Below, one piece after another: positions 1 through 13,495 of a stretch of 33,727 bases of DNA. The translations under genes and the position numbers were made by a program. The notes beneath the pieces were generated by a model, which did not search any database, had not been told where the DNA came from, and saw nothing but the letters and a program-made list of their open reading frames with translations. Source of the DNA: Podaxis mareebaensis (Eukaryota > Basidiomycota > Agaricomycetes > Agaricales > Agaricaceae); the NCBI GenBank assembly GCA_018524725.1, contig JAEUWP010000347.1, positions 1-33,727 on the forward strand, given 5' to 3'. The stretch's first letter is position 1. Each line of letters starts with the position of its first letter.

Positions 1-6
1 TCTGAT

Positions 7-2400
7 ATGCACAAAATGATGTCAGAGTTTCTTAAGGTCTCCAAGTCAATAACATCTTTTGGATGTTTTGCTGATGCCACCTGGCGCACTCCCACCCGAA
101 ATCCTCCCACCCAGTCTTCCCCTCTTCCTCCTCTCGCCTGCTCTTCCCCTCTCCCTCCTCTCACCCGTAACAATGCAGATCATAGGGACATAATTCCTTC
201 CAGCTGGCTGGCCACCTGGCATACTCCCACCCACTCTCCTCCCACCCACTTTCCTCTTACCCGCTCTCCTCCCACCCGCTCCTACCCTCTCCCTCCTGCC
301 CCTCCTCCCATCCACCTCCCCAGCCCCAGCCATAAAGAGAGTGTTCATCCCTCTCCCGACGACAGTGGCTACATCGCTGAATCCGAGGTAGACACTGCCG
401 ACCCTCCCAGCCCCGACTCTCCTCCCCCTTTCTCCATCTGCCTCCCCGCCCTTCAACCCTTCTCTTATCCCGGCCCTCCCAGTCCTTCGTCTCTTGTTCC
501 CATCCCTCCCTCTACACTATTTCCTGTCGATGAATGTGATCATGATTCTCCCACTGACAGTGGCTATGCTGCCGGATTTGAATCTGAAGAAAACACGGCC
601 AAGCCCACAGGACTTCCGGTCTGCCAGAAAACTCGTTCGCTGAGACCCGCGTCAATGGTGATAGATGGCTCAATTGAACATGTTCCTCCTCAGCTATTTG
701 ATTACCACGTTGAGGGTCCCAGAGCGTTCACCAATCAAACTGATCAAAAACCTCTTCCGCCAGTTCCCGTCTCCGGTCGATTACAGGGTCCCCCTGGTAT
801 GCACTATATGCACCTTGTCATGCTGAGTGTACTCCTTTAATTGACGATCCGAAGAGCGGGTATCTGCCAGGGACTGGGATTCGCCCTCCGAAGAGGTTAT
901 CGTCAATCTCTTACAAACAAAAGTTCTGGGTTCCAAGCTGAATTACAAAGCCCTGTTGGAGATGAAAGGGACGAGTGCCCAGAGAATCCTTGATATCTTC
1001 CAAAAGGTAGTGAGAAGCTATAACAACAGGAAGGCAGTAGGCTCATTTTGCATATCAGCTGTTGGATTCCCCTAATATGGTTGATCATATGGCTCGGCGA
1101 TCAATTTTGATGGCGCTCCTGCGCTTAGCCGCTGCATGTGGACACTATCCTCAACAATTGAAACTCGACAATATTCAGCGTGAACCTTCACCCGTAACAG
1201 CTGGTCAATTTGGGGAAGTATATAAAGGGCGATATAAAGGTCAACAAGTCTGCCTTAAGATTTTCAAGTTGTATCAACGATCGCAAATCGATCACTTGAA
1301 CAAGGTACGCGCGAGATTTTCCCGGTGTATATCGGTAATTTATTCATAAGTTACAGTGCTTTTCGCGTGAGGCTATCGTTTGGAGCCAACTGGATCATCC
1401 GAATGTGTTACCATTCTATGGGATCTATCATGTACTCGACCCTCATCCTCGAATTGGACTCGTGTCTCCTTGGATGTCGAACGGGAATCTACCTGAGTAC
1501 CTGGCTGCACATCCAGATATGCCACGGTTGCCGTTTGTTGGTACCATCGATTATCCTGAGTGAGACGCCAACTGACAAGTTTAAAAAGGTTCATGACGTT
1601 CTGGCTGGCCTGCGATATTTACACCAAAACCAAATTGTACATGGCGATTTAAAAGGGGTAAGCTCGATAATCTGTTCTTGATTCCGTTCAGAATTGAAAC
1701 AACTCAAGGTCAATATCTTGGTCTCCGAAGACTGGTCTGCGTGCCTCACAGATTTTGGTTTGTCTTTTGTGATGGACGCCGACATTCTCAGATGGACTTC
1801 ATTGGAGGCGATGACACGAGCTGGAGGTACAGTGCGTTGGACTGCTCCAGAAATGATCGAGGGTACAGAGGAAGGTGCTCCATTAAGGCCAACCTTTGCG
1901 AGTGACATTTATTCCCTGGCTTCCGTCATGATCGAGGCAAGTCAACACTAATACTATGCTTGGGCTCCTCTGCAATAATCAATATGGATCCTTCGTGCAG
2001 ATATTCACCGGTCAAGTACCATACTATGAATTTCCTCGAGATCTCACTGTCTTATCAAAGGTGAACCGTGGAATCCGGCCGACGAGGCCAGGACATGAGA
2101 CAGCACCAGAGCTCACGGACCATATTTGGGCAATTATGCAAAATTGCTGGAGTGAGGCGCCGAGTGACAGACCGACGGTGGACGAAGTTGTAGAGAGACT
2201 TCTGGGGGCTGCCTCACTTTTGATGTGGCTGCAGACAGTGCCGGCGGGACCCAGGAATAGTATCTCTGCTCTACGCAATAGCAAGCTTTCTGTGTCGGAT
2301 ATAAGATTCCTGTCGGATGTGGTGAGTGACTCGCAAAGATTCTCTGCACCTGGGATCTCATAAAGCTCTATGTTCGCAGTTTAACCTTGGCCTTGCTTGA
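7..2400 (+). CDS. TKL-type protein kinase with Pro-rich N-terminus (copy 1)
   Basis: Predicted Ser/Thr or dual-specificity kinase of the tyrosine-kinase-like group expanded in Agaricomycetes. Exons: 7-796, 855-1006, 1059-1304, 1357-1536, 1589-1657, 1709-1936, 2001-2321, 2380-2400, about 668 aa. Residues 1 to about 250 are Pro/Ser/Thr-rich with repeated TW-TPT-PPT units and two DSGY motifs. Residues 270-350 form a helical stretch shared with the fusion gene at 4720. The kinase domain shows the Gly loop AGQFGEVYKG (about 362-371), VCLK Lys (about 381), catalytic loop HGDLKG (about 474), DFG (about 494) and TAPEM, so it looks catalytically competent. Like many TKLs it has HGD instead of HRD. The intron after residue Glu of VMIE uses a GC donor (gag|gcaagt at 1937). 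The last exon encodes FNLGLA then stop, matching the other copies. The start is uncertain: ATG at 7 lies at the window edge and the gene could begin upstream. Confidence 0.8.
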
Positions 2401-3379: not shown

Positions 3380-4200
3380 CCCAAAAGGCACATGACGCTC
3401 CGGCTGACCTGCATTGTCCACACCAAAACCAACTCGTACACGGTGACCCAAAGGGGGTAAGTTTGGTGCTCTGTTTTTGATTCCATACGAGTTGAAAGGA
3501 CCCAAGGTCGATATCCTAGTCTCCGAAAATGGGTCTGCATGCCTCGCGGATTTCGGGTTATCATCCATGATGGACGCCGACGACGTTCCTAGATGGACAT
3601 CGTTAGAGACGATGACGCGAGTTGGAGGTACAGTGCGTTGGACCGCTCCAGACATGCTTGGTGATGGTGAGGATGGCGAATCGTTGCGACCAAGCCTCGC
3701 CAGTGATGTTTATTCCCTCGCCGCTGTTATGATCGAGGTAAGTGTGTCACTAACTAACAGTGGTATGCCATCGCCAGCGTTGATGACTTGAATCATGCTA
3801 GATATTCACGGGTCGGATACCACATTACGAGTTCCCTCGAGATGTTACTGTATTGTCAAAGGTGATCCGGGGCATCAGGCCGACAAGACCAAGACACGAG
3901 GCAGCGCCAGAGCTCACAGATCACATTTGGGAGATTATGTTGGATTGTTGGAGTAATGACCCACGCGATCGACCTACGGTCAGTCGAGTTGTAGAGAGGT
4001 TTTCTGAGAAGGGACCGGCTCCTCCACGATTCCAGCAAGCGAAGCGCAAGAATAATATCTCTGCTCAGCGGAATTGCAAGCTTTCTGAACTGGAAATAGG
4101 GTTTTTGTTGGGAGTGGTGAGTGATTTGTAAAGACCTCTGCGTCCAGAGGCTTATAAAATTGGGTGTTTGCAGTTTGATCTTGATGAAAATATGTCATAG
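3380..4200 (+). pseudogene. 5'-truncated TKL kinase relic (copy 2)
   Basis: Homology to copies 1 and 3 begins abruptly at about 3380, inside what is an intron of the full genes, so the N-lobe (Gly loop, Lys) is missing. What remains is the catalytic-loop exon (about 3391-3456, reading HGDPKG where the others read HGDLKG), then intron 3457-3506 (gtaagt...cccaag), an exon with VDILVSENG, ADFGLS and TAPDM, intron 3739-3802 and an exon with IFTGRIPHYEF and DRPTV. A final intron leads to an exon encoding FDLDENMS and stop at 4198-4200. Splice sites downstream of the break are intact and the C-lobe frames are open. No N-lobe lies upstream in 2400-3380. Most likely a dead duplicate; a transcribed C-lobe-only protein cannot be excluded. 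Confidence 0.75.
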
Positions 4201-4640
4201 TCGGTAATATACCCACATCTTTGTTCATCGCACAACGTCACAGTTGGGGAAGGAGAAAATTAATATACGCAGGTATCAACTAACACGGGAATCGAGGTCT
4301 TAAGAAGAACAGTAGGCGAGGACCCCAGTTGGGCGCCCCCCCTGCCCGACAGCGTGAAACTGGAGTCGAGTGGGCCGCGATTGGGTGGGTGGGTCCACCT
4401 GTGAGCATCAGGCCACTCGGAAACGTTCACGGGTACTGCACAGGCATTTTGGTGCAGTCATCGGGTGCGGTGGGTGGGAGAGCTGACGAGGCCAACGTGC
4501 CGCACCTCGAGTCGGTCGAGGTGGTGGAGGAAAGAGAGGCTACTTAGAGTGTGGCTTACGTTTGCTCACAAAGACTACACTCTGCACGCTTTCCTCGTGC
4601 CTCACCCACTCTGCAGATCACCAATATATGGACCTTCCAG
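4201..4640. other. Intergenic, no gene seen
   Basis: GC-rich sequence between the kinase relic and the ATG13-like promoter duplication. Two short open frames (72 and 61 codons, 4329-4650) show no recognisable motif and no splice-supported extension. Similarity to the region upstream of full-length ATG13 starts at about 4641. Confidence 0.4.
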
Positions 4641-4649
4641 GATCAAGTA

Positions 4650-4665
4650 GATAAGATAAGATGAG
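4650..4665 (+). promoter_or_regulatory. Overlapping GATA motifs upstream of the ATG13-kinase fusion
   Basis: Two overlapping GATAAG words (4650-4655 and 4655-4660) followed by GATGAG lie about 60 bases before the ATG at 4720. The same arrangement occurs 60 bases before ATG13. GATA factors of the AreA/Gln3 class bind HGATAR and control nitrogen-starvation genes in fungi. That they act here is inference; the motif could also lie in the 5' UTR. Confidence 0.4.
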
Positions 4666-4719
4666 ACCTTAACCCCAGCAGTTCCGTATAGAGACGTTAG
4701 TGGGTTGCAATATGCTACG

Positions 4720-7286
4720 ATGATGGAGGAGCAGCAACAGAGGACGGACCTAGTCGCCTACCATTTCTACACAAAGCTCTTCTCTGTCGTGCACGACGCT
4801 CGCGTCACAAACAACTCAGACGATTCAGACCACCTCAAGCCTGACAAATGGGTCAGTTCTTTGCCTCTCACACTGCGCTATAGCTTCTGACTCGACGCAG
4901 TTCAACCTCGAGTCGCCGGGCCCTCACCTCTTCTCCGAGGATGTCCGCGATTTCTACAAGTCTATCACGCGCAACACACCGCCGTCTCTTGAGCTAGAAG
5001 TCACCCTGACCATCCCCGAACTTGCACCAAACCAGGCCCTTGTCTACTTCTCCGATTCGAGTCCGGTACGCGTTGAGCCAACGCCAAAGGCCATTCTGCT
5101 GGAAGTGTGGACAGTCACACTCTCTGGCTCACAGAACCAAGGGGTAACACCGCCCTCGGTGTACAAGCATGGCATCGCGCTTTTCCGGAGCATTTACACC
5201 CTCCTTCGCACCCTTCCCGCATGGGCTCTCTGCAAGCGCATTCGCAGACATACCAGTGGTCTTGCTCGCACAGGTGCTTTCTCCATCTCACTTCGTCCTC
5301 GCCCTCCGAACGCACACACACACGACACCGTCCTCGCCTTTGATCAACAACGCTTCCAGTCTGTCCCCCTCATCCCAACTCTAACCCAAAACTTTCCCCC
5401 CATTCAACTCCCCCCTGGCAGTCTCGAGTTCTCAGTCACCTACCTCGCCACGCCGTATTTCCAAATCAACACGCTCGGGTCACTTTTATCAAGCAGATTC
5501 ATTTCCGCCTTTAATATCAGTGAAGGCTTCCTCCCGACACCCGAAAATTCCACGTCGAGACACGAGGAGAGGTTGACGCTTCCTTCGAAGATAGGTGAGT
5601 TGCCCAGGAGTTCACCTCGTGATCCATTGGCGAGGCTGAGAAAGGAGAGTGTGAGTATAGTAAATATTGCCTTACCGTGACCTGCGGACTCACCTCAACG
5701 CAAGCAGTCGTTGAATTCGAATCCGTTGGATGCGAGCCCGATTGTAAGCCAAGGATCCGAAGAGGAGATATCGGTAGATTTACCATTCGAAGAGGCCATC
5801 ATAAACCTCCTGCAAACGCAAGTTCTTGGCTCCAAGCTGAACTATAAAACCCTGTTGGAGATGAAGGGGACTAGTGCGCAGAGGATCCTTAATATATTTC
5901 AAAAGGTAGTGAAAAACATTGATTACGGAAAGATAACAAGCTTAGTTTTCACCCCAGTTGTTGGATTCTCCTGATATGGTCGATGATCTGGCTCGACGGT
6001 CGATTCTGATGGCCCTCCTACGACTATCTGCAGCATGTGGACTCTATCCCCAGCAATTGAAACTTGACGACATTCAGCGCGAACCTTCGCCTGTGACAGC
6101 CGGTCAATTTGGGGAAGTATATAAAGGGCAATATAAAGGGCAACAAGTTTGTGTCAAAATCTTCAAGTTGTATCAACGGTCGCACATCGATCACTTGAAC
6201 AAAGTACGCTTGAACTCTTCTTGTATCTATCAACAATTCGCTTATATGTTGTAGCACTTTTCGCGCGAGGCTATTGTTTGGGGTCAACTGAGTCATCCCA
6301 ATGTATTACCGTTCTATGGAATCTACCACATCCTCGACCCTTATCCTCGGATTGGACTCGTGTCCCCCTGGATGTCGAACGGGAACCTGCCAGAATACTT
6401 GGCCGCACATCCGGATAAGCCGCGGTTGCCATTCGTTAGTATTACTGATTTTCCTACGTGAGGCGCCAACTTATAAACTTGGAAGGTTCATGACGTTCTT
6501 GCCGGCTTGCAATATTTACACCAGAACCAAACCGTACATGGCGACCTGAAAGGGGTAAGCTTGATATTCTGTTTTTGACTCTATACATGGTTGAAACGAC
6601 TCAAGCTCAACATCTTGGTCTCTGAAGACGGGTCTGCGTGCCTCGCAGATTTCGGGTTGTCCTCAGTGATGGACGCCGACATTCTTAGATGGTCTTCGCT
6701 GGAGACAATGATACGAGCTGGAGGTACAGTGCGTTGGACCGCCCCGGAAATGATCGAAGGTACAGAGGAAGGTGGCCCGTTGAGACCAACTTTCGCGAGC
6801 GACGTTTATTCCCTGGCTTCTGTCATGATCGAGGTAAGTCTAATACTAATGCCACTGAAATCGTCAATATGGATCTCTTCACGCAGATATTCACTGGTCA
6901 AATACCGTACTATGAATATCCTCGAGATCTCACTGTCTTGTCGAAGGTGAACCGCGGAATCCGGCCGACGAGGCCAGGACACGAGACAGCACCCGAGCTT
7001 ACAGACCACATTTGGGCAATTATGCAAGATTGCTGGAGAGATGTGCCGAGTGACCGACCGACGGTGGACGAGGTTCTTGAGAGACTTCCGGAGGATGGGC
7101 TATCTCTACCGCGGCTACGGGCGGCGCAGGCAGAACTCAGGAATAATATCTCTGCTCAGCGTAATAGCAAGCTTTCTGTGTCGGATATAGGATTCTTGTC
7201 GGATACGGTGAGTGGCTTGCAGAGATTCTCGGCCTCTGGAATCTCATAACGTTCCGTGTTTGCAGTTTAAGCTTGGTCTTGCTTGA
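4720..7286 (+). CDS. Chimeric ATG13 HORMA - TKL kinase fusion gene (copy 3 of the kinase)
   Basis: Predicted 715-aa protein. Exons: 4720-4851, 4901-5650, 5705-5905, 5958-6203, 6255-6434, 6486-6554, 6606-6833, 6887-7207, 7266-7286. Residues 1 to about 310 match the N-terminal HORMA half of ATG13 encoded at 8971 (YHFYTKLFSVVHDARVT, LTIPELAPNQALVY, VYKHGIALFRSIYTLLRTLP, LEFSVTYLATPYFQ). Residues from about 320 match kinase copy 1: FEEAIINLLQTQVLGSKLNY, Gly loop AGQFGEVYKG (about 410), Lys about 428, HGDLKG (about 521), DFG (541-543), TAPEM, terminal FKLGLA. All kinase signature residues are present. A TGA at 5678-5680 would stop translation after the HORMA part, but it lies in a 54-nt in-frame segment bounded by GTGAGT and CAAG; removing that segment keeps the frame. 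Without splicing the product is a 319-aa HORMA-only protein. HORMA domains of ATG13 bind ATG9 and scaffold the ATG1 complex; whether this chimera does so is inference. A low-expressed or recently dead chimera is the alternative. Confidence 0.72.
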
Positions 7287-7600
7287 TGTACCTGCATTTA
7301 TTACTGGTCCCCTCTACTGTAACGCATACCTGTGATAGCCCATAACCCATAGAATTCTCATGTAACAGCGTCGGTTCGCGGGAACTTTTGACTTACGATT
7401 CATGAGATGAAAAACAGTGGTGCCGACGAAATTAAGGTGGAGGCAACTAGTAGTACCTTTGGTGTGTCGATAACTGTCTCGCAGACCAACGTATTTTCTC
7501 GCGAGGGAAGGCCAGATACTCGTACCATACTCCATGTCCCATAGGCTAGCCACGTCACCAAGTGCTATGGGTCATGAGGGAGATGACTCGTAGGATGAAA

Positions 7601-7661
7601 TGCACCTTCCATTAGTGGAGATGATACTGGATTTGTTAAAATCGGAGGTGGGAGCGGTGAC
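7601..7661. repeat. 61-bp perfect direct repeat, copy A
   Basis: Identical over 61 bases to 8828-8888 (begins tgcaccttccattag, ends gggagcggtgac). A few more flanking bases (gatgaaa and gagatgact) also match imperfectly on the left side. The copies are 1.23 kb apart. Confidence 0.9.
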
Positions 7662-8827
7662 AACCGTGGTATATTATGTAACAAGTTCAATAAAGGGTGT
7701 GGATAGTTTATTGGAGGTGAGGGTCCGTCAAAGGGGGCATGAGTGGCACGCCTAGTGAGGGACGAGCGAGGTGTAATTTCTCGTCTAAATGCCACGACAC
7801 AGCCCATAGCTAAGTAACTGCCGCACGCTACACCTGTTCACTGTCTATCTACCTATACATTGAATTCTCGCGTCGCTGCATCATCTCTCCGTTTCCATTC
7901 ATCTTTATAAACCCACCCACCCATTTCCCGTTTGACCATGGACCTCGGCACAGGCGATCTGACATGCGCCTCGGGGCGACCTGACCGCGTTCTTCCTCGA
8001 CAAATCCTTCCTGCGGACTCGTGAAATAGCTCTCAATATGGGTATCTTTCAGTCTGGCTACCTAGCCTAAATCAGCACGATGATTAAATGAGAAGCACAG
8101 CTGTTCTGTCTGGAGGGAGGCTGAATGATTGTTGTTGCAAGATATTGCATGAATGTTGTAGAGGCTTGAAGAACATTTTCAGCAATGGGTAGAGGGACTG
8201 CAGTGGCACTGAGACATTGACTTTATCGGGGATCTCACTGTTCTTCTTGTGAATCCGTCCCGGTGTTTCTTCAATTTTGCAATTATGTGGATTTCTTCAA
8301 CGAGGTTGACCGGTACACTTTTGCCTGAGAGACCTACTCGCCTCTTGATTATTTCTTGTATTTTGATCGATTTTTCCACGGAGTTATGGACCTCGGTGAC
8401 GGTCCATACTCTGTCATAAACCCACAGCTCGGAGATGCGACGAGGTGCTATGAGTTAAGGCAGAGAAGAGTGTAGTGGCCTTGGCGGATTGATACCTTGT
8501 GGACTAACGTATTTTCTCGTCCGGGGAGGCCAGATACTGATCTGCAGATTGCGTTCGGAGTTATGATGGCGCTAAGAGTGAAGAATCTATAGTGGTATTA
8601 CGCACTTCTTCAAGGGAATGTTCGAGCTATTTAACGGCAGATGAGAATGTATCTTCCAGTCGTGGAGAGTGCATTCCATTTATTGGGTGCCGGAGTTATT
8701 GATTCTGGGGCGATGTCGTACTACATGAAGAGTTGAAATCTGACGTAGGAGAGGGGGGCGGAGTGATGCATGCACACCTCCGAGCCAGAAATACTGCCTT
8801 GAGGAGATGACTAGTCACGATGAAAAA

Positions 8828-8888
8828 TGCACCTTCCATTAGTGGAGATGATACTGGATTTGTTAAAATCGGAGGTGGGAGCGGTGAC
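8828..8888. repeat. 61-bp perfect direct repeat, copy B
   Basis: Second copy of the repeat at 7601-7661. It ends only a few bases before the point (about 8893) where similarity between the ATG13 upstream region and the upstream region of the fusion gene (about 4641) begins, so it sits at a duplication breakpoint. Confidence 0.9.
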
Positions 8889-8901
8889 GGCGGATCAGGT
8901 A

Positions 8902-8917
8902 GATAAGATAAGATGAG
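8902..8917 (+). promoter_or_regulatory. Overlapping GATA motifs upstream of ATG13
   Basis: GATAAG at 8902-8907 and 8907-8912 plus GATGAG at 8912-8917, about 60 bases before the first ATG of ATG13. The same words are kept in the duplicated promoter at 4650. They are consistent with control by a nitrogen-responsive GATA factor, which would fit an autophagy gene; binding is not shown by sequence alone. Confidence 0.45.
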
Positions 8918-8970
8918 ACCTTAACCCCGGTGAGTTTCCGTATATAGGTGTTGGTGGGTTGCAGTATGCT

Positions 8971-11900
8971 ATGATGATGGAGGAGCAGCAACAGAAGACG
9001 GACCAGATCGCCTACCATTTCTACACAAAGCTCTTCTCTCTCGTACACGACGCTCGCGTCACAAACGACTCGAACCACCTCAAGCCTGACAAATGGGTCA
9101 GTTTCCTCTCTCTTCTACGCTCTCCGCACACCTCCTGACTCGACCCAGTTCAACCTCGAGTCGCCAGACTCTGACCTCTTCACCAAGGATGCCCGCGACC
9201 TCTACAAGTCCATCACGCGCAACACGCCCCCGCCATTCGAGCTAGAAGTCATCTTGACGATCCCCGAACTCGCGCCGAACCAAGCTGTTGTGTACCTCCC
9301 CCCCGACTCGAGTCGGGCACGTGTTGAGCCTACGCCAGAGGCTATCGTGCTGGAAGTGTGGACGGTCACTCTCTCTGGCTCGCAGAATGCAGGCGTAACA
9401 CCGCCTCCGATATACAAGCATGGGATGGCACTGTTCCGGAGCATTTACACCCTCCTCCGCACCCTCCCAGCATGGACTCTCTACAAACGCATCCGCAGAC
9501 GCACTGGTGGCCTCGCCCGCACAGGTGCCCTCTCCATCTCTCTCCGTCTCCGTCCCTCGCACACACACGACACCGTCCTCGCCTTTCATCAACAGCCCTC
9601 TCCGTCCCTCCCACCCATCCCAACCCTAACCCAAAGCTTCCCTCCCGTCCAACTCCCTCCAGGCACCCTCGAGTTTTCCGTCACCTATCTCGCCACTCCG
9701 TATTTCCAGATTGACGAGCTAGAATCGGTGTTGTCAAGCAGGTTCATCTCCGCCGACCTTAATGCAGGTGAAGGCTTTGTTCCGACACTCAACAAGTCCA
9801 CCTCGAGACCGTCACATTCACCTCCGTCCATATCCACGCGCAGTCCAGCGAACAGGTCTCCAATGGCGATTCAGAAGGAACCGAACGAGAGTATCGCGGA
9901 GAGGTTTATCTTGCCTTCAAAGATGAGTGGGTTACCTGGGAGTTCGCCCCGTGATCCGTTGGCGAGGTTGAGAAAGGAGAGTGTGAGTGTTAATACCACC
10001 TCACCGTCACCTACGGGGTCGCCACGTCAGCGCAAGCAGTCACTAAACTCCAATTCATCCCCTACGAGCTCGGTCGTAAGCCAAGGCCCATTCTTGTCGA
10101 ACAGCACAGCTGTCGGGTTCCCTACTACAACCACTACACCCGCCCAAGGCACAACGAGCACAACCAGTCCATTACCCATCCGCAGACCAAACCTAAACCC
10201 ATTCAAGAGCAACACAATCTCATCCCCATCCAATTCCTCACCTTCCATATCCCTACGTTCAAATGTCAACATCCCACCCTCAGCCAATTCACCACTATCA
10301 ACTACAAACCCACAACCCCCCGTTCCACTTCCACTTGCCGGTCAACAACCATCATCCGTATCCAGCACACACTCGATTCACACACACCTCCGCCATACCT
10401 CTGTCAGTGGAACGGGGACACCCACACGCGCACCGCCGTCTCCGATTATCCCGTCTGGTGCGCATCCGTTTGTGGAGAGGGAGAGGAGGGCGAGTACGTT
10501 GTCGACTATGAGTATGGGTGATCGGGAGCGGGCTCTCTCGAACGCTGGTGCTGTTGCTGGTGGAGGTGAAGGGGCTGTGACAGGGACTGGGACGAGTCCG
10601 GTGCCTATGCCGACGAGGAAGAGGTATTCGAGTTCGTTTGGGCATAGATATACGGGGAGCGTGGGTTCGAACCAGGGTGGGGCTGCTGGTGCTGGAGCTG
10701 GAGGAGGAGGAACTGGAACTGGAGGTACGAGTGCTGGGGCTGGGAGTGGACCGGGGAGTGCGGCTGGGAGTGCTGGGACGGGTGGTGGTGTTGGTGTTGG
10801 TGGAGGAGGGAGACCTGCGACGCCGGATGTAGGTCCAGGCGGGGCTAAACCTGTGAGTACCAACGTTCAACCTTCCTTTGAATCCCTCGGTCGAGTGATC
10901 GGGGCCGTTGACCGGGCGATGATCGTGCGCGGGAACCATTCCAGCCATCACACTTGACAGTCAACTTCTATCAACTTCCTCCCCTAAACCGTTCCATTCA
11001 CTAACTCGATTTTCTCCATACACAGTCGTACCTATCCACAAACCCAGACGAAGACGACATATCCATATTCGTACAAGAAATCGACGCACGTAAGCCCCTC
11101 ATCGGACGCGCAAGGGAATACATATCCACACACCCAGACCCACACTCGCCGCATTCACCACTCTCACCCTCACGACCGTACTCCAGAACACATTCCCGTT
11201 CAAGATCTCGTTCGCGTACGCGCACTCAACATAGCGTCTCCAACCCTCCCGCTGTTCCTAGCGCTGCAGGCGGTGCTGGTGATAGCGGTAGCCCACCGAA
11301 TCCAGTCATCTACGGCCCGAGGGAACGAGAACCGTTGGGGAGGTTACCTGGCATAGGGCTCGGATTGGCTGGGATCAGTAATTGGGCGACGTACGGACCT
11401 GAGCCTGAGGGTGACCATGAGAGGGAGGGAGATGAGGAAGATGAACGTGAACGGTCGAGGTTTGCTGGGCGGTATGCTACCACTTCAGAGGCAAGGTCTC
11501 CGTTGTCGCCGGTACCGACGTCGAGCTCGCCTGCGGCGTCGCCTACGTTGTTGCAGTTTAGGTATCATCAGCAGCGGGAGAGGCAGAGGAGGGAGGTTTC
11601 GCCGCCTGCTACTACTGGGGGAGGTGGGAGGAGGACGTCGAGGGATGCTGGGGGGTTGAAGACGACGCCTGTTGTTGGTGCTGCTGGCCAGCCTACGACT
11701 ACGACTACAACGGCCTCTTCCCCTCCTTCGACAACCACGACGACTACGACTACGACTTCGACTTCGACTCCGAGTCGTCCAACCACGTCTACGGTGACAA
11801 GAGACGCACACGAGTTATCCGTATCCCCAACTTCGCCCGCACGCGGGCCGATGCTGACGAGTCAGGAAGAGGTGGGGGAGAGATTGAGGAGGATGAATGA

Positions 11901-13495
11901 GGTGTTTTTGAAGAGTCTTGAGGGGATAAGTAGTGGGAATGGGGAGAGGGAGAGGAGAAGAAGGATGATGAGGGAGAGGGAGAGAGAGTTGGAGAGGGAG
12001 CGGGAACGTGAGAGGGAGAGGCATCGGCAGGAAGAGGGGGAAGATGAAGAAAGGAGGGCGGGGAAACAGAGGGAGGTGGGTAGTGTTGAAGTGGAGGAGG
12101 AGGGGGATGGGGATGGAGATGGGGCGAGGAGGAGGAATTGGGAGGTTGAGAGGGAGAGGGAACGGAGGTATTTTTATGGGTATGATGATCGGGCTGGGTT
12201 GGGACTTGGGTTTGCCTCGGGTGGTGCTAGTGCTAATGCTGGTGGTAGTGGTGGTGCGGGTACGGCTGGTGGTCAACCCTCGGATCCGCCGCAGTCGCCT
12301 TCGCCGTTGTCGTTAACGGGTGCTGCTCCCGTCACTGTAGACACTACTGGCACTACAAATCCTACGAACCCGGCGCTGCATCCCTTTCGGACCTTGCATT
12401 CACGATCGGGCAACGCAAGCGGGAGCAGCTCGACTTCTATCTCCGCATCCAACTCCAACTCGGCCTCAGGATCCGGTTCTGGCTCCGGCTCTGGCTCTGG
12501 ATCATCAGGTATCAGAAGAGGGGGACGAGGGGTATACGGACCAACCCCGATCGGGGACGACAGCACCACCACCACCACCAGTAACGACGCAGTCGGAGGA
12601 GACCCCGAAATTGGGATCGGACTCGGTCTTGGACTCGGACTGGGGCTTGGACTCGGACTTGGTGGCGGAGGGAGCAGCACGACGAGTATGTACAGTCAGG
12701 GGTCGGAGGAGGTTATTGGGAGGATGGAGTTTGAGATGTCGGGTGGGGGGTCGTTGTATGATAGAGAGAGGGAGAGGGAGAGGCAGCATGGGATTGGGAG
12801 TAGTCGGTTTCGGAGGTTTTGAGGAGGACAGGGAAGAGGGGGAAGAGGGGGAGCGAGAGTGGGTGGAGGGGAGTGAGAGTGTTGTGTTTGGACGGGTTGG
12901 GGAGATGGGAGTGGTTGAGGAGGAACGAGAGGAGGAGGAGGAAATTACTCCTGTTATGCGTGTTTTGGATGAGTTGGGGAGTAGTATTGAGTTTAGTGGT
13001 GGGAGTACGATTGGTGCTGGGTCTGTTGGGTTCGACGAGGGTGTTGGTCAAGTGGATATCGCAGGAGGAGGGGATTCGGTTACGCTCGCGGAATCTGGCG
13101 CGCAACAGAGGAAGGTGTCCTCTACTCATTTCAATGGTCCTTCACCTTCCCATTCCCGATCACACCCGCCCCCAAGCTCGCATACACAACCCCGGACATA
13201 TTCGCCAGCACACTCCGAGTTACTCAGGATCCACCAACGCCATTCATCGTCCCATTCCTCTCGTGCACACTCGGTCACGTCGTCTCCAACATCTTCGCCT
13301 AAAACTCGGTTGAAACAGATAGAGAGCAAGAGAGATAGTCGCAGGAAGGAAGAGACGGCCGAGTTGAAGCGGAGGACAAGGGTAATGAGTGGTGCTGTTG
13401 GCGCGCTCGTGCTTGCTGTTGCGGGATGGAGGATTTTTGGAGGTGGTGCTGGTGGTGGTGTTGATGGTGCTGCTGGAGGCAGAGGCGATCTTTGA
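8971..13495 (+). CDS. ATG13: Autophagy-related protein 13 (ATG1 kinase complex subunit)
   Basis: Regulatory scaffold of the ATG1 complex that starts autophagosome formation; TORC1 controls it by phosphorylation in yeast. Exons: 8971-9096, 9149-10852, 11026 to about 12685, about 12804-13495, about 1390 aa. The HORMA domain covers residues 1 to about 245 with typical fungal ATG13 blocks: VHDARVT, ILTIPELAPNQAVVYL, PEAIVLEVWTV, KHGMALFRSIYTLLRTLPAW, LEFSVTYLATPYFQ. The rest is disordered and Ser/Pro/Gly/Thr-rich, with the conserved acidic block DEDDISIFVQEIDARKPL just after the second intron (about residue 618). Arg/Glu-rich (11941-12030) and Gly-Leu (12614-12663) repeats follow. The frame closes at 12822, but the +2-shifted frame to 13495 has matching composition and ends in a hydrophobic tail, so I infer a last intron near 12686-12803 with a GTATGT donor; otherwise the protein ends at 12822 with about 1208 aa. 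The protein is far longer than yeast Atg13 (738 aa). The start has three consecutive ATGs at 8971, 8974 and 8977. Confidence 0.88.
12614..12663 (+). repeat. Gly-Leu coding microrepeat in ATG13
   Basis: Tandem hexamer-like units of the form ggactcgg/gggctt encode alternating Gly-Leu followed by polyGly. It is a low-complexity, slippage-prone tract within the disordered C-terminal half of ATG13 and lies just before the inferred last intron. Confidence 0.8.

What the first reader, a model, noticed from the sequence alone, without database searches (positions are those of the whole stretch)
4720..7286. In-frame chimera of an ATG13 HORMA region and a TKL kinase
The first about 310 codons are a diverged copy of the ATG13 gene located 4 kb downstream, and the remainder is a copy of the kinase gene at 1-2400. 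Both halves keep open frames, matching splice sites and all kinase signature residues, and the join (about 5755-5780) is in frame. ATG13 normally recruits and regulates the separate kinase ATG1, so a HORMA module carrying its own unrelated kinase would be a new arrangement in autophagy initiation, or a decoy. I know of no described ATG13-TKL fusion.
Basis: partly seen in the sequence, partly recalled or inferred. Interest (0 to 1): 0.88.

Follow-up and report, generated by a model that had tools for sequence, protein, structure and literature searches.

The report
ATG13–kinase fusion gene in a mushroom
In this mushroom genome, half of an autophagy regulator gene (ATG13) is joined in frame to a signalling kinase gene and selection has kept both halves, but a stop codon at the join must be spliced out for the fused protein to be made today, and its transcript has not been seen.

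Summary
Confirmed: 4720-7286 is a chimera of the downstream ATG13 gene (HORMA half) and the upstream TKL-type kinase gene K1 (kinase half). With one linker intron it encodes 714 aa with Pfam ATG13 (14-230) and PK_Tyr_Ser-Thr (406-668). Gene order and similar synonymous divergence of the halves (dS about 0.6; 0.5-0.67) fit one tandem duplication. Pairwise dN/dS is 0.19-0.20 (HORMA) and 0.12-0.18 (kinase). Kinase codons upstream of the first in-frame ATG are constrained, so translation began further upstream for most of its history. Weak points: an in-frame TGA (5678-5680) lies in the linker; only a 57-nt candidate intron, coding in ATG13 itself, removes it, with signals average for this genome but unproven. 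The HORMA half changes about five times faster than ATG13. None of 120 listed ATG13 relatives has a kinase domain and none of 120 listed kinase relatives has ATG13, but 18 of those kinases carry other domains: a new variant of a known habit, module capture by an expanded mushroom kinase family. Most likely role (inferred): a kinase steered to autophagy sites by HORMA. RNA-seq across 5620-5740 decides.

The parts
4640..4717 (+). copied ATG13 5' flank (promoter-proximal/5' UTR), matches 8892-8971
   Evidence: 87.5% over 80 columns; above the 58.5% identity at synonymous sites, binomial P 1.6e-8; a gene-conversion tract could also explain it
4720..4851 (+). exon 1, HORMA start (ATG at 4720 or 4723)
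4852..4900 (+). intron 1 (49 nt), same site as ATG13 intron 9097-9148
4901..5650 (+). exon 2, rest of the ATG13 HORMA domain
   Evidence: PF10033 E 2.3e-29; AlphaFold2 model of this exon best matches Atg13 HORMA 4j2g, E 8.8e-10
5651..5707 (+). candidate linker intron (57 nt) holding the in-frame TGA 5678-5680; coding sequence in ATG13 and in the orthologues read
   Evidence: splice score 15.98: 9 of 22 window introns score lower, 14 of 565 decoys score as high or higher; coding in orthologues
5708..5905 (+). exon 3 holding the join: ATG13-like to 5754, kinase-like from about 5754 (one shared base)
   Evidence: base-level joint is my reading of the alignments
5958..6203 (+). exon 4, kinase N-terminal extension and N-lobe (glycine loop, lysine)
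6255..6434 (+). exon 5, kinase (alpha-C glutamate)
6486..6554 (+). exon 6, HGDLKG catalytic loop
6606..6833 (+). exon 7, DFG and APE motifs
6887..7207 (+). exon 8, C-lobe
7266..7286 (+). exon 9 and stop codon
1..2400 (+). K1, the parent kinase gene (5' end cut by the contig edge); model introns 797-854, 1007-1058, 1305-1356, 1537-1588, 1658-1708, 1937-2000 (GC-AG), 2322-2379
8974..12822 (+). ATG13, the parent gene (HORMA exons 8974-9096 and 9149 onward; 3' end uncertain)

Best explanation
One tandem duplication between K1 (broken in its intron just upstream of the conserved kinase part) and ATG13 (broken in exon 2) made a third gene with the ATG13 promoter-proximal region and HORMA domain in front of a complete TKL-type kinase. 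It was in frame at birth and has been kept by selection as one protein. After birth a substitution made an in-frame TGA in the linker, and the 57-nt stretch around it (5651-5707, with GTGAGT donor, CTCAC branch-like site and CAG acceptor) is most likely now spliced out. The HORMA half most likely works as a targeting arm that brings the kinase to ATG101/ATG9-containing autophagy sites, independent of ATG1 because ATG13's tail was left behind. Shown: anatomy, origin pattern, constraint. Inferred: splicing today, catalysis, targeting and any effect on autophagy.
For: Anatomy. Origin: gene order and dS 0.60/0.59 (HORMA, counting/likelihood) against 0.67/0.50 (kinase). Constraint: pairwise dN/dS 0.187/0.203 and 0.117/0.183, likelihood ratio against 1 of 75 and 108; chimera branch of the kinase under an equal neutral clock 0.107-0.157, 2dlnL 37-94 with three outgroups; no stop outside the linker although 13-15 are expected under neutrality at 0.25-0.30 substitutions per site. 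Joint translation: first in-frame ATG after the TGA is at 5861, while the 28 codons before it show 12 synonymous and 6 nonsynonymous differences from K1 (sites 20.2 and 63.8), Fisher P 1e-5. Splice signals within the range of real introns. HORMA fold retained. ATG101, ATG9 and ATG17/11-type matches exist in the genome.
Against: No transcript evidence. The linker intron is not inherited, and ATG13 itself has nearly the same signals there (total about 14.1 against 15.98). HORMA evolves fast: 49 of 61 differences from ATG13 fell on the chimera side, and 9 of about 52 residues invariant in the orthologues are changed (17 of 60 as printed, see full report). The branch test without a clock is weak (2dlnL 1.55, 2.56, 4.45; 2.03). 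dS varies along the halves (0.41 to 1.03 by thirds). The intergenic parts of the two supposed tandem units align only at the gene-proximal ends, and the K2 fragment lies in only one of them.
Confidence: 0.55

Rival explanations
1. Recent loss: the chimera was a working gene for most of its life but the TGA now ends translation, leaving a 303-aa HORMA-only product (possibly a competitor of ATG13) and a dead kinase half.
For: In-frame TGA at 5678-5680, unspliced product 303 aa; 0 or 1 stops are compatible with neutral drift for up to about 0.05 substitutions per site (P(<=1) = 0.15); HORMA half evolving fast; ATG13 has similar cryptic splice signals that it does not appear to use.
Against: The stop sits inside a 57-nt, in-phase GT-AG stretch with a branch-like site; no second stop in either half; kinase half more conserved than its parent K1 (14 against 34 derived residues, 8 ambiguous).
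Confidence: 0.25
2. Promoter and N-terminus capture: the fused protein is made, but the HORMA half serves only expression or stability, with no autophagy role; the kinase does what the rest of its family does.
For: HORMA about five times faster than ATG13 while the kinase stays tight; 18 of 120 listed kinase relatives carry other non-kinase Pfam domains, so N-terminal partners seem often exchanged; copied 5' flank is conserved.
Against: HORMA half dN/dS still far below 1; 49 changes against 112-142 expected if neutral at 0.3 per site; about 43 of 52 ortholog-invariant residues kept (my subtraction).
Confidence: 0.2
3. Two separate genes side by side: a truncated ATG13 copy and a kinase with its own start.
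For: The TGA separates them unless spliced.
Against: No in-frame ATG between 5681 and 5860, and constrained codons in that stretch. A separate 5' exon for the kinase was not searched for.
Confidence: 0.07
4. Assembly misjoin of two unlinked diverged copies.
For: Draft assembly of 429 contigs; reads could not be checked.
Against: Junction unique in the assembly; similar dS in both halves; in-frame join; gene order predicted by one tandem duplication.
Confidence: 0.04

Closest known systems
ATG13 (Pfam PF10033), HORMA subunit of the ATG1/ULK1 complex
   Same: HORMA domain, start, first intron site and 5' flank; best fold match Atg13 HORMA 4j2g
   Different: lacks the whole tail downstream of the HORMA-proximal linker; carries a kinase; 49 of 61 differences are on its side
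Expanded TKL-type kinases of Agaricomycetes (named TKL/TKL-ccin in some database entries; Laccaria expansion, PMC2838846, passages read)
   Same: kinase domain, introns, N-terminal extension; clusters with K1 and K2
   Different: front half is ATG13 HORMA instead of K1's proline/serine-rich region; none of the 120 listed relatives has it
Other module-TKL chains of mushrooms, e.g. cyclophilin-TKL (P0041, P0043)
   Same: TKL kinase in one chain with an unrelated module
   Different: module is a cyclophilin, SH3, Ras, Kelch, RING and so on, not HORMA; those are database gene models that were not checked here
ATG1/ULK1 kinase bound by ATG13
   Same: HORMA protein brings a kinase to autophagy sites (what it may work like)
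   Different: kinase is TKL-type, covalently joined, and the chimera lacks ATG13's tail; membership in the ATG1 complex not shown

Membership tests
ATG13 | N-terminal HORMA domain | tested here: met
   PF10033 135.9 bits, cut-off 25; PDB sequence match 4yk8_B 1.4e-12; the ten Foldseek hits with E <= 0.001 are ATG13/ATG13-ATG101 HORMA entries
ATG13 | long disordered tail after HORMA (which, from general knowledge, holds the ATG1- and ATG17-binding parts) | tested here: not met
   homology to ATG13 stops at 5754/10086; kinase follows
ATG13 | binding to ATG101/ATG9 | not testable with these tools
   partner genes match in the genome; binding needs experiment
Agaricomycete TKL-type kinase | complete kinase domain with catalytic motifs | tested here: met
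   PF07714 146.8 bits; motifs; HGD instead of HRD
Agaricomycete TKL-type kinase | falls inside the family tree | tested here: met
   groups with K1 (ultrafast bootstrap 92), then K2 (90), in a tree with 8 fetched paralogues of the same genome
Agaricomycete TKL-type kinase | kinase activity | not testable with these tools
   no assay
functional fused gene | one open reading frame without rescue splicing of the linker | tested here: not met
   TGA at 5678-5680
functional fused gene | spliced transcript joining both halves | not testable with these tools
   no RNA-seq held; candidate intron scored only

The most novel reading that the evidence does not exclude
A fungus has a second autophagy-initiation kinase in which the HORMA adaptor and an unrelated TKL kinase are one polypeptide, so that a HORMA-steered kinase phosphorylates ATG9/ATG101 or their neighbours without ATG1; and the fusion was kept readable by turning 57 nt of old ATG13 coding sequence into an intron after a stop codon arose.
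Probability: 0.2. Interest if true: 0.85.

Novelty: new variant of a known kind. Interest (0 to 1): 0.57.

Why it matters
It would be a natural test of whether recruiting a kinase through the ATG13 HORMA domain is enough to act on autophagy initiation without ATG1's own kinase, and a clear case of how the expanded mushroom TKL kinases may gain targets by capturing neighbouring modules. It may also be an example of an intron made from coding sequence that rescues a fused gene.

Tried and rejected
Pseudogene since birth: rejected by dN/dS and by the near-absence of stops. Join through an acceptor near 5775 with the donor at 5651: rejected because the phases do not fit (worked out by eye). Independent kinase gene: no start codon where it would be needed. 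ATG13-kinase chains elsewhere, judged by precomputed Pfam domains: 0 of 15 and 0 of 120 listed of 223 hits (some of them the same proteins as); 0 of 120 listed of 2178 kinase hits carry PF10033. Hits outside the listed 120 were not seen, only the candidates sharing most words were scored, the length filter leaves out very long chains, and proteins in no database (this genome's own included) cannot appear. Dating by the HORMA tree failed: it puts the chimera outside ATG13 and all its closest relatives (support 75), probably long-branch attraction; a rough clock from ATG13 (9 derived changes in 289 since the duplication against 17% difference from Macrolepiota) points to a duplication after that split. 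The AlphaFold2 models of exon 2 (mean pLDDT 68.5) and of the ATG13 equivalent (66.9) are too uncertain for interface analysis; the second was not searched against structures. Literature: seven searches; two searches returned nothing, and among the rows listed by the other five no title or abstract start describes an ATG13-TKL fusion; rows not listed were not seen and subscription papers are largely not held. PMC2838846: passages read; PMC9931213: abstract and outline only.

Full report
What is there. The window is one 33.7-kb contig of a 36.95-Mb, 429-contig genome. Reading left to right on the + strand: kinase gene K1 (1-2400, cut by the contig edge), a kinase fragment K2 (3385-4183), the chimera (4720-7286), and ATG13 (from 8974). 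Self-comparison shows the chimera's front half to be a copy of ATG13 (80.5% and 74.9% identity in two pieces) and its back half a copy of K1 (80.6%).

Gene model. Nine exons and eight introns of 49-58 nt give 714 aa. Pfam finds ATG13 at 14-230 (135.9 bits) and PK_Tyr_Ser-Thr at 406-668 (146.8 bits). The front half matches solved Atg13 HORMA structures by sequence (4yk8_B, 1.4e-12), and an AlphaFold2 model of exon 2 alone (mean pLDDT 68.5) has Atg13 HORMA chains as its best structural matches (4j2g, E 8.8e-10). The kinase keeps glycine loop, lysine, alpha-C glutamate, catalytic aspartate (as HGD), DFG and APE.

The stop codon. Seven introns have a counterpart in a parent. The linker intron 5651-5707 does not: in ATG13 and in the orthologues read that stretch is coding. 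The chimera has an in-frame TGA there (5678-5680), so without splicing the product is a 303-aa HORMA protein. Scored against 22 introns of the window (fifteen in K1, the chimera and ATG13, seven in a gene at 31.3-33.2 kb that I take, from recall and without a call, to be a carboxypeptidase; intron list and branch-point rule are mine), the candidate gets 15.98; 9 of 22 real introns score lower, and 14 of 565 GT-AG pairs of 45-70 nt inside stretches that I took to be exons score as high or higher. The same place in ATG13 totals about 14.1 with the same donor but a poorer branch site. This makes splicing plausible, not shown. The stretch is 43 of 54 identical to ATG13, against 260 of 363 for the seven shared introns, so it shows no sign of having evolved as an intron for long.

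Origin. ATG13 homology ends at 5754/10086. BLAST homology to K1 begins at 5777/878, and the alignment carries it back to about 5754/846, inside what I model as K1 intron 797-854, with one base shared at the joint. A tandem duplication with its left end in that K1 intron and its right end in ATG13 exon 2 would give exactly the order K1 - chimera - ATG13. It also predicts equal ages of the halves: dS is 0.60 (counting) or 0.59 (likelihood) for HORMA and 0.67 or 0.50 for kinase. Against a clean story: dS by thirds runs 0.41, 0.62, 0.82 in HORMA and 1.03, 0.72, 0.42 in kinase, which suggests some gene conversion; the intergenic units align only next to the genes; and K2, which is older than the K1/chimera split, occurs in one unit only.

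Selection. Pairwise dN/dS is 0.187/0.203 for HORMA and 0.117/0.183 for kinase, both far from 1 (2dlnL 75 and 108). By lineage, 49 of 61 HORMA differences fall on the chimera, 9 on ATG13, 3 unclear, which corresponds to a chimera-side ratio near 0.3 at an assumed neutral divergence of 0.3 (simulation). Of 60 columns invariant in the orthologues (those with at least 10 residues), 17 were printed as changed in the chimera and 8 in ATG13; eight of the chimera's lie past the end of the compared stretch, and I take ATG13's eight to be the same, which leaves 9 of 52 against 0 of 52. In the kinase the tendency is opposite: 14 derived residues in the chimera, 34 in K1, 8 unclear. With equal neutral time for K1 and chimera the chimera branch has dN/dS 0.157, 0.107 and 0.131 with three outgroups and a value of 1 is rejected (2dlnL 79, 94 and 37). 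Without that assumption the branch test has little power (1.55, 2.56, 4.45; 2.03). Under neutrality 13-15 stops would be expected at 0.25-0.30 substitutions per site; one is present, in the linker. The two HORMA exons differ from ATG13's in length by 9 and 84 nt, multiples of three.

One protein or two. After the TGA the first in-frame ATG is at 5861. The 28 kinase codons before it have 12 synonymous and 6 nonsynonymous differences from K1 (Fisher P 1e-5), and 6 nonsynonymous changes are fewer than neutral drift in the chimera alone would give at 0.25 per site (P 0.004). So for most of its history this stretch was probably translated from a start further upstream, and the HORMA half is the open frame that leads into it; I did not search for another 5' exon or promoter. 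The copied 78 nt before the start codon are 87.5% identical to the ATG13 flank over 80 columns, more than synonymous sites (P 1.6e-8), which fits a retained promoter-proximal region, or a conversion tract.

Mechanism. The genome has ATG101 matches at one locus, ATG9 matches at one locus and ATG17/ATG11-type matches at two (one clearly over the cut-off, one at it). In the human complex the ATG13:ATG101 HORMA dimer binds the ATG9A tail (PMC9931213, abstract). If the chimeric HORMA keeps this binding, it would bring a TKL kinase to the same place without ATG1, because the ATG13 tail that carries the ATG1 and ATG17 contacts (general knowledge) is absent. This is inference. The faster HORMA evolution fits a changed partner, a weaker role or partial decay equally well.

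Known or new. TKL-type kinases are numerous in this genome (148 and 156 matches; they count exons, not genes, and only the best candidates were scored) and in Laccaria (PMC2838846, passages). Of the 120 kinase relatives listed (of 2178 hits), 18 carry non-kinase Pfam domains such as cyclophilin, SH3, Ras, Kelch or RING (my count by eye, leaving out PF06293, PF00069, PF03109, PF19974, PF14531, PF01163, PF01636, PF17667 and PF07387, which I take from recall to be kinase-like models; database gene models, not checked), none ATG13. Of the 120 ATG13 relatives listed (of 223 hits), none carries a kinase domain. The habit of module capture is therefore visible in databases; the ATG13 HORMA partner is new to these searches.

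Verdict. A real, old, selected chimera with a plausible but unproven rescue intron. Interest is above average; the decisive evidence is RNA.

Noticed in passing
window 1-77: The contig begins in a repeat with 21 further matches elsewhere in the genome at 81-100% identity (23 matches in all, two of them in this window); K1's first codons may read into it.
   Followed up: no
window 7579-7661 and 8803-8888: Recent local duplication just upstream of ATG13: 94% over 86 columns with 64 nt identical, far younger than the chimera; it abuts the start of the ATG13/chimera homology.
   Followed up: no
window 3385-4183: K2, a kinase fragment; only the part from the catalytic loop onward was found, with open frames in the two exons compared.
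   Followed up: partly
window 12780-12830: ATG13's reading frame stops at 12822, but orthologues P0001 and P0002 continue with sequence that here lies in another frame (12341-13495): an unseen intron, a base error or a shortened tail.
   Followed up: no
window 1709-2000 (K1): K1 has a GC-AG intron (1937-2000) and Thr instead of Ala before DFG, and more derived residues than the chimera's kinase.
   Followed up: partly
proteins P0041 and P0043: Cyclophilin-TKL chains in Leucocoprinus leucothites and in an unnamed short contig, an apparent further module capture by the same kinase family.
   Followed up: no
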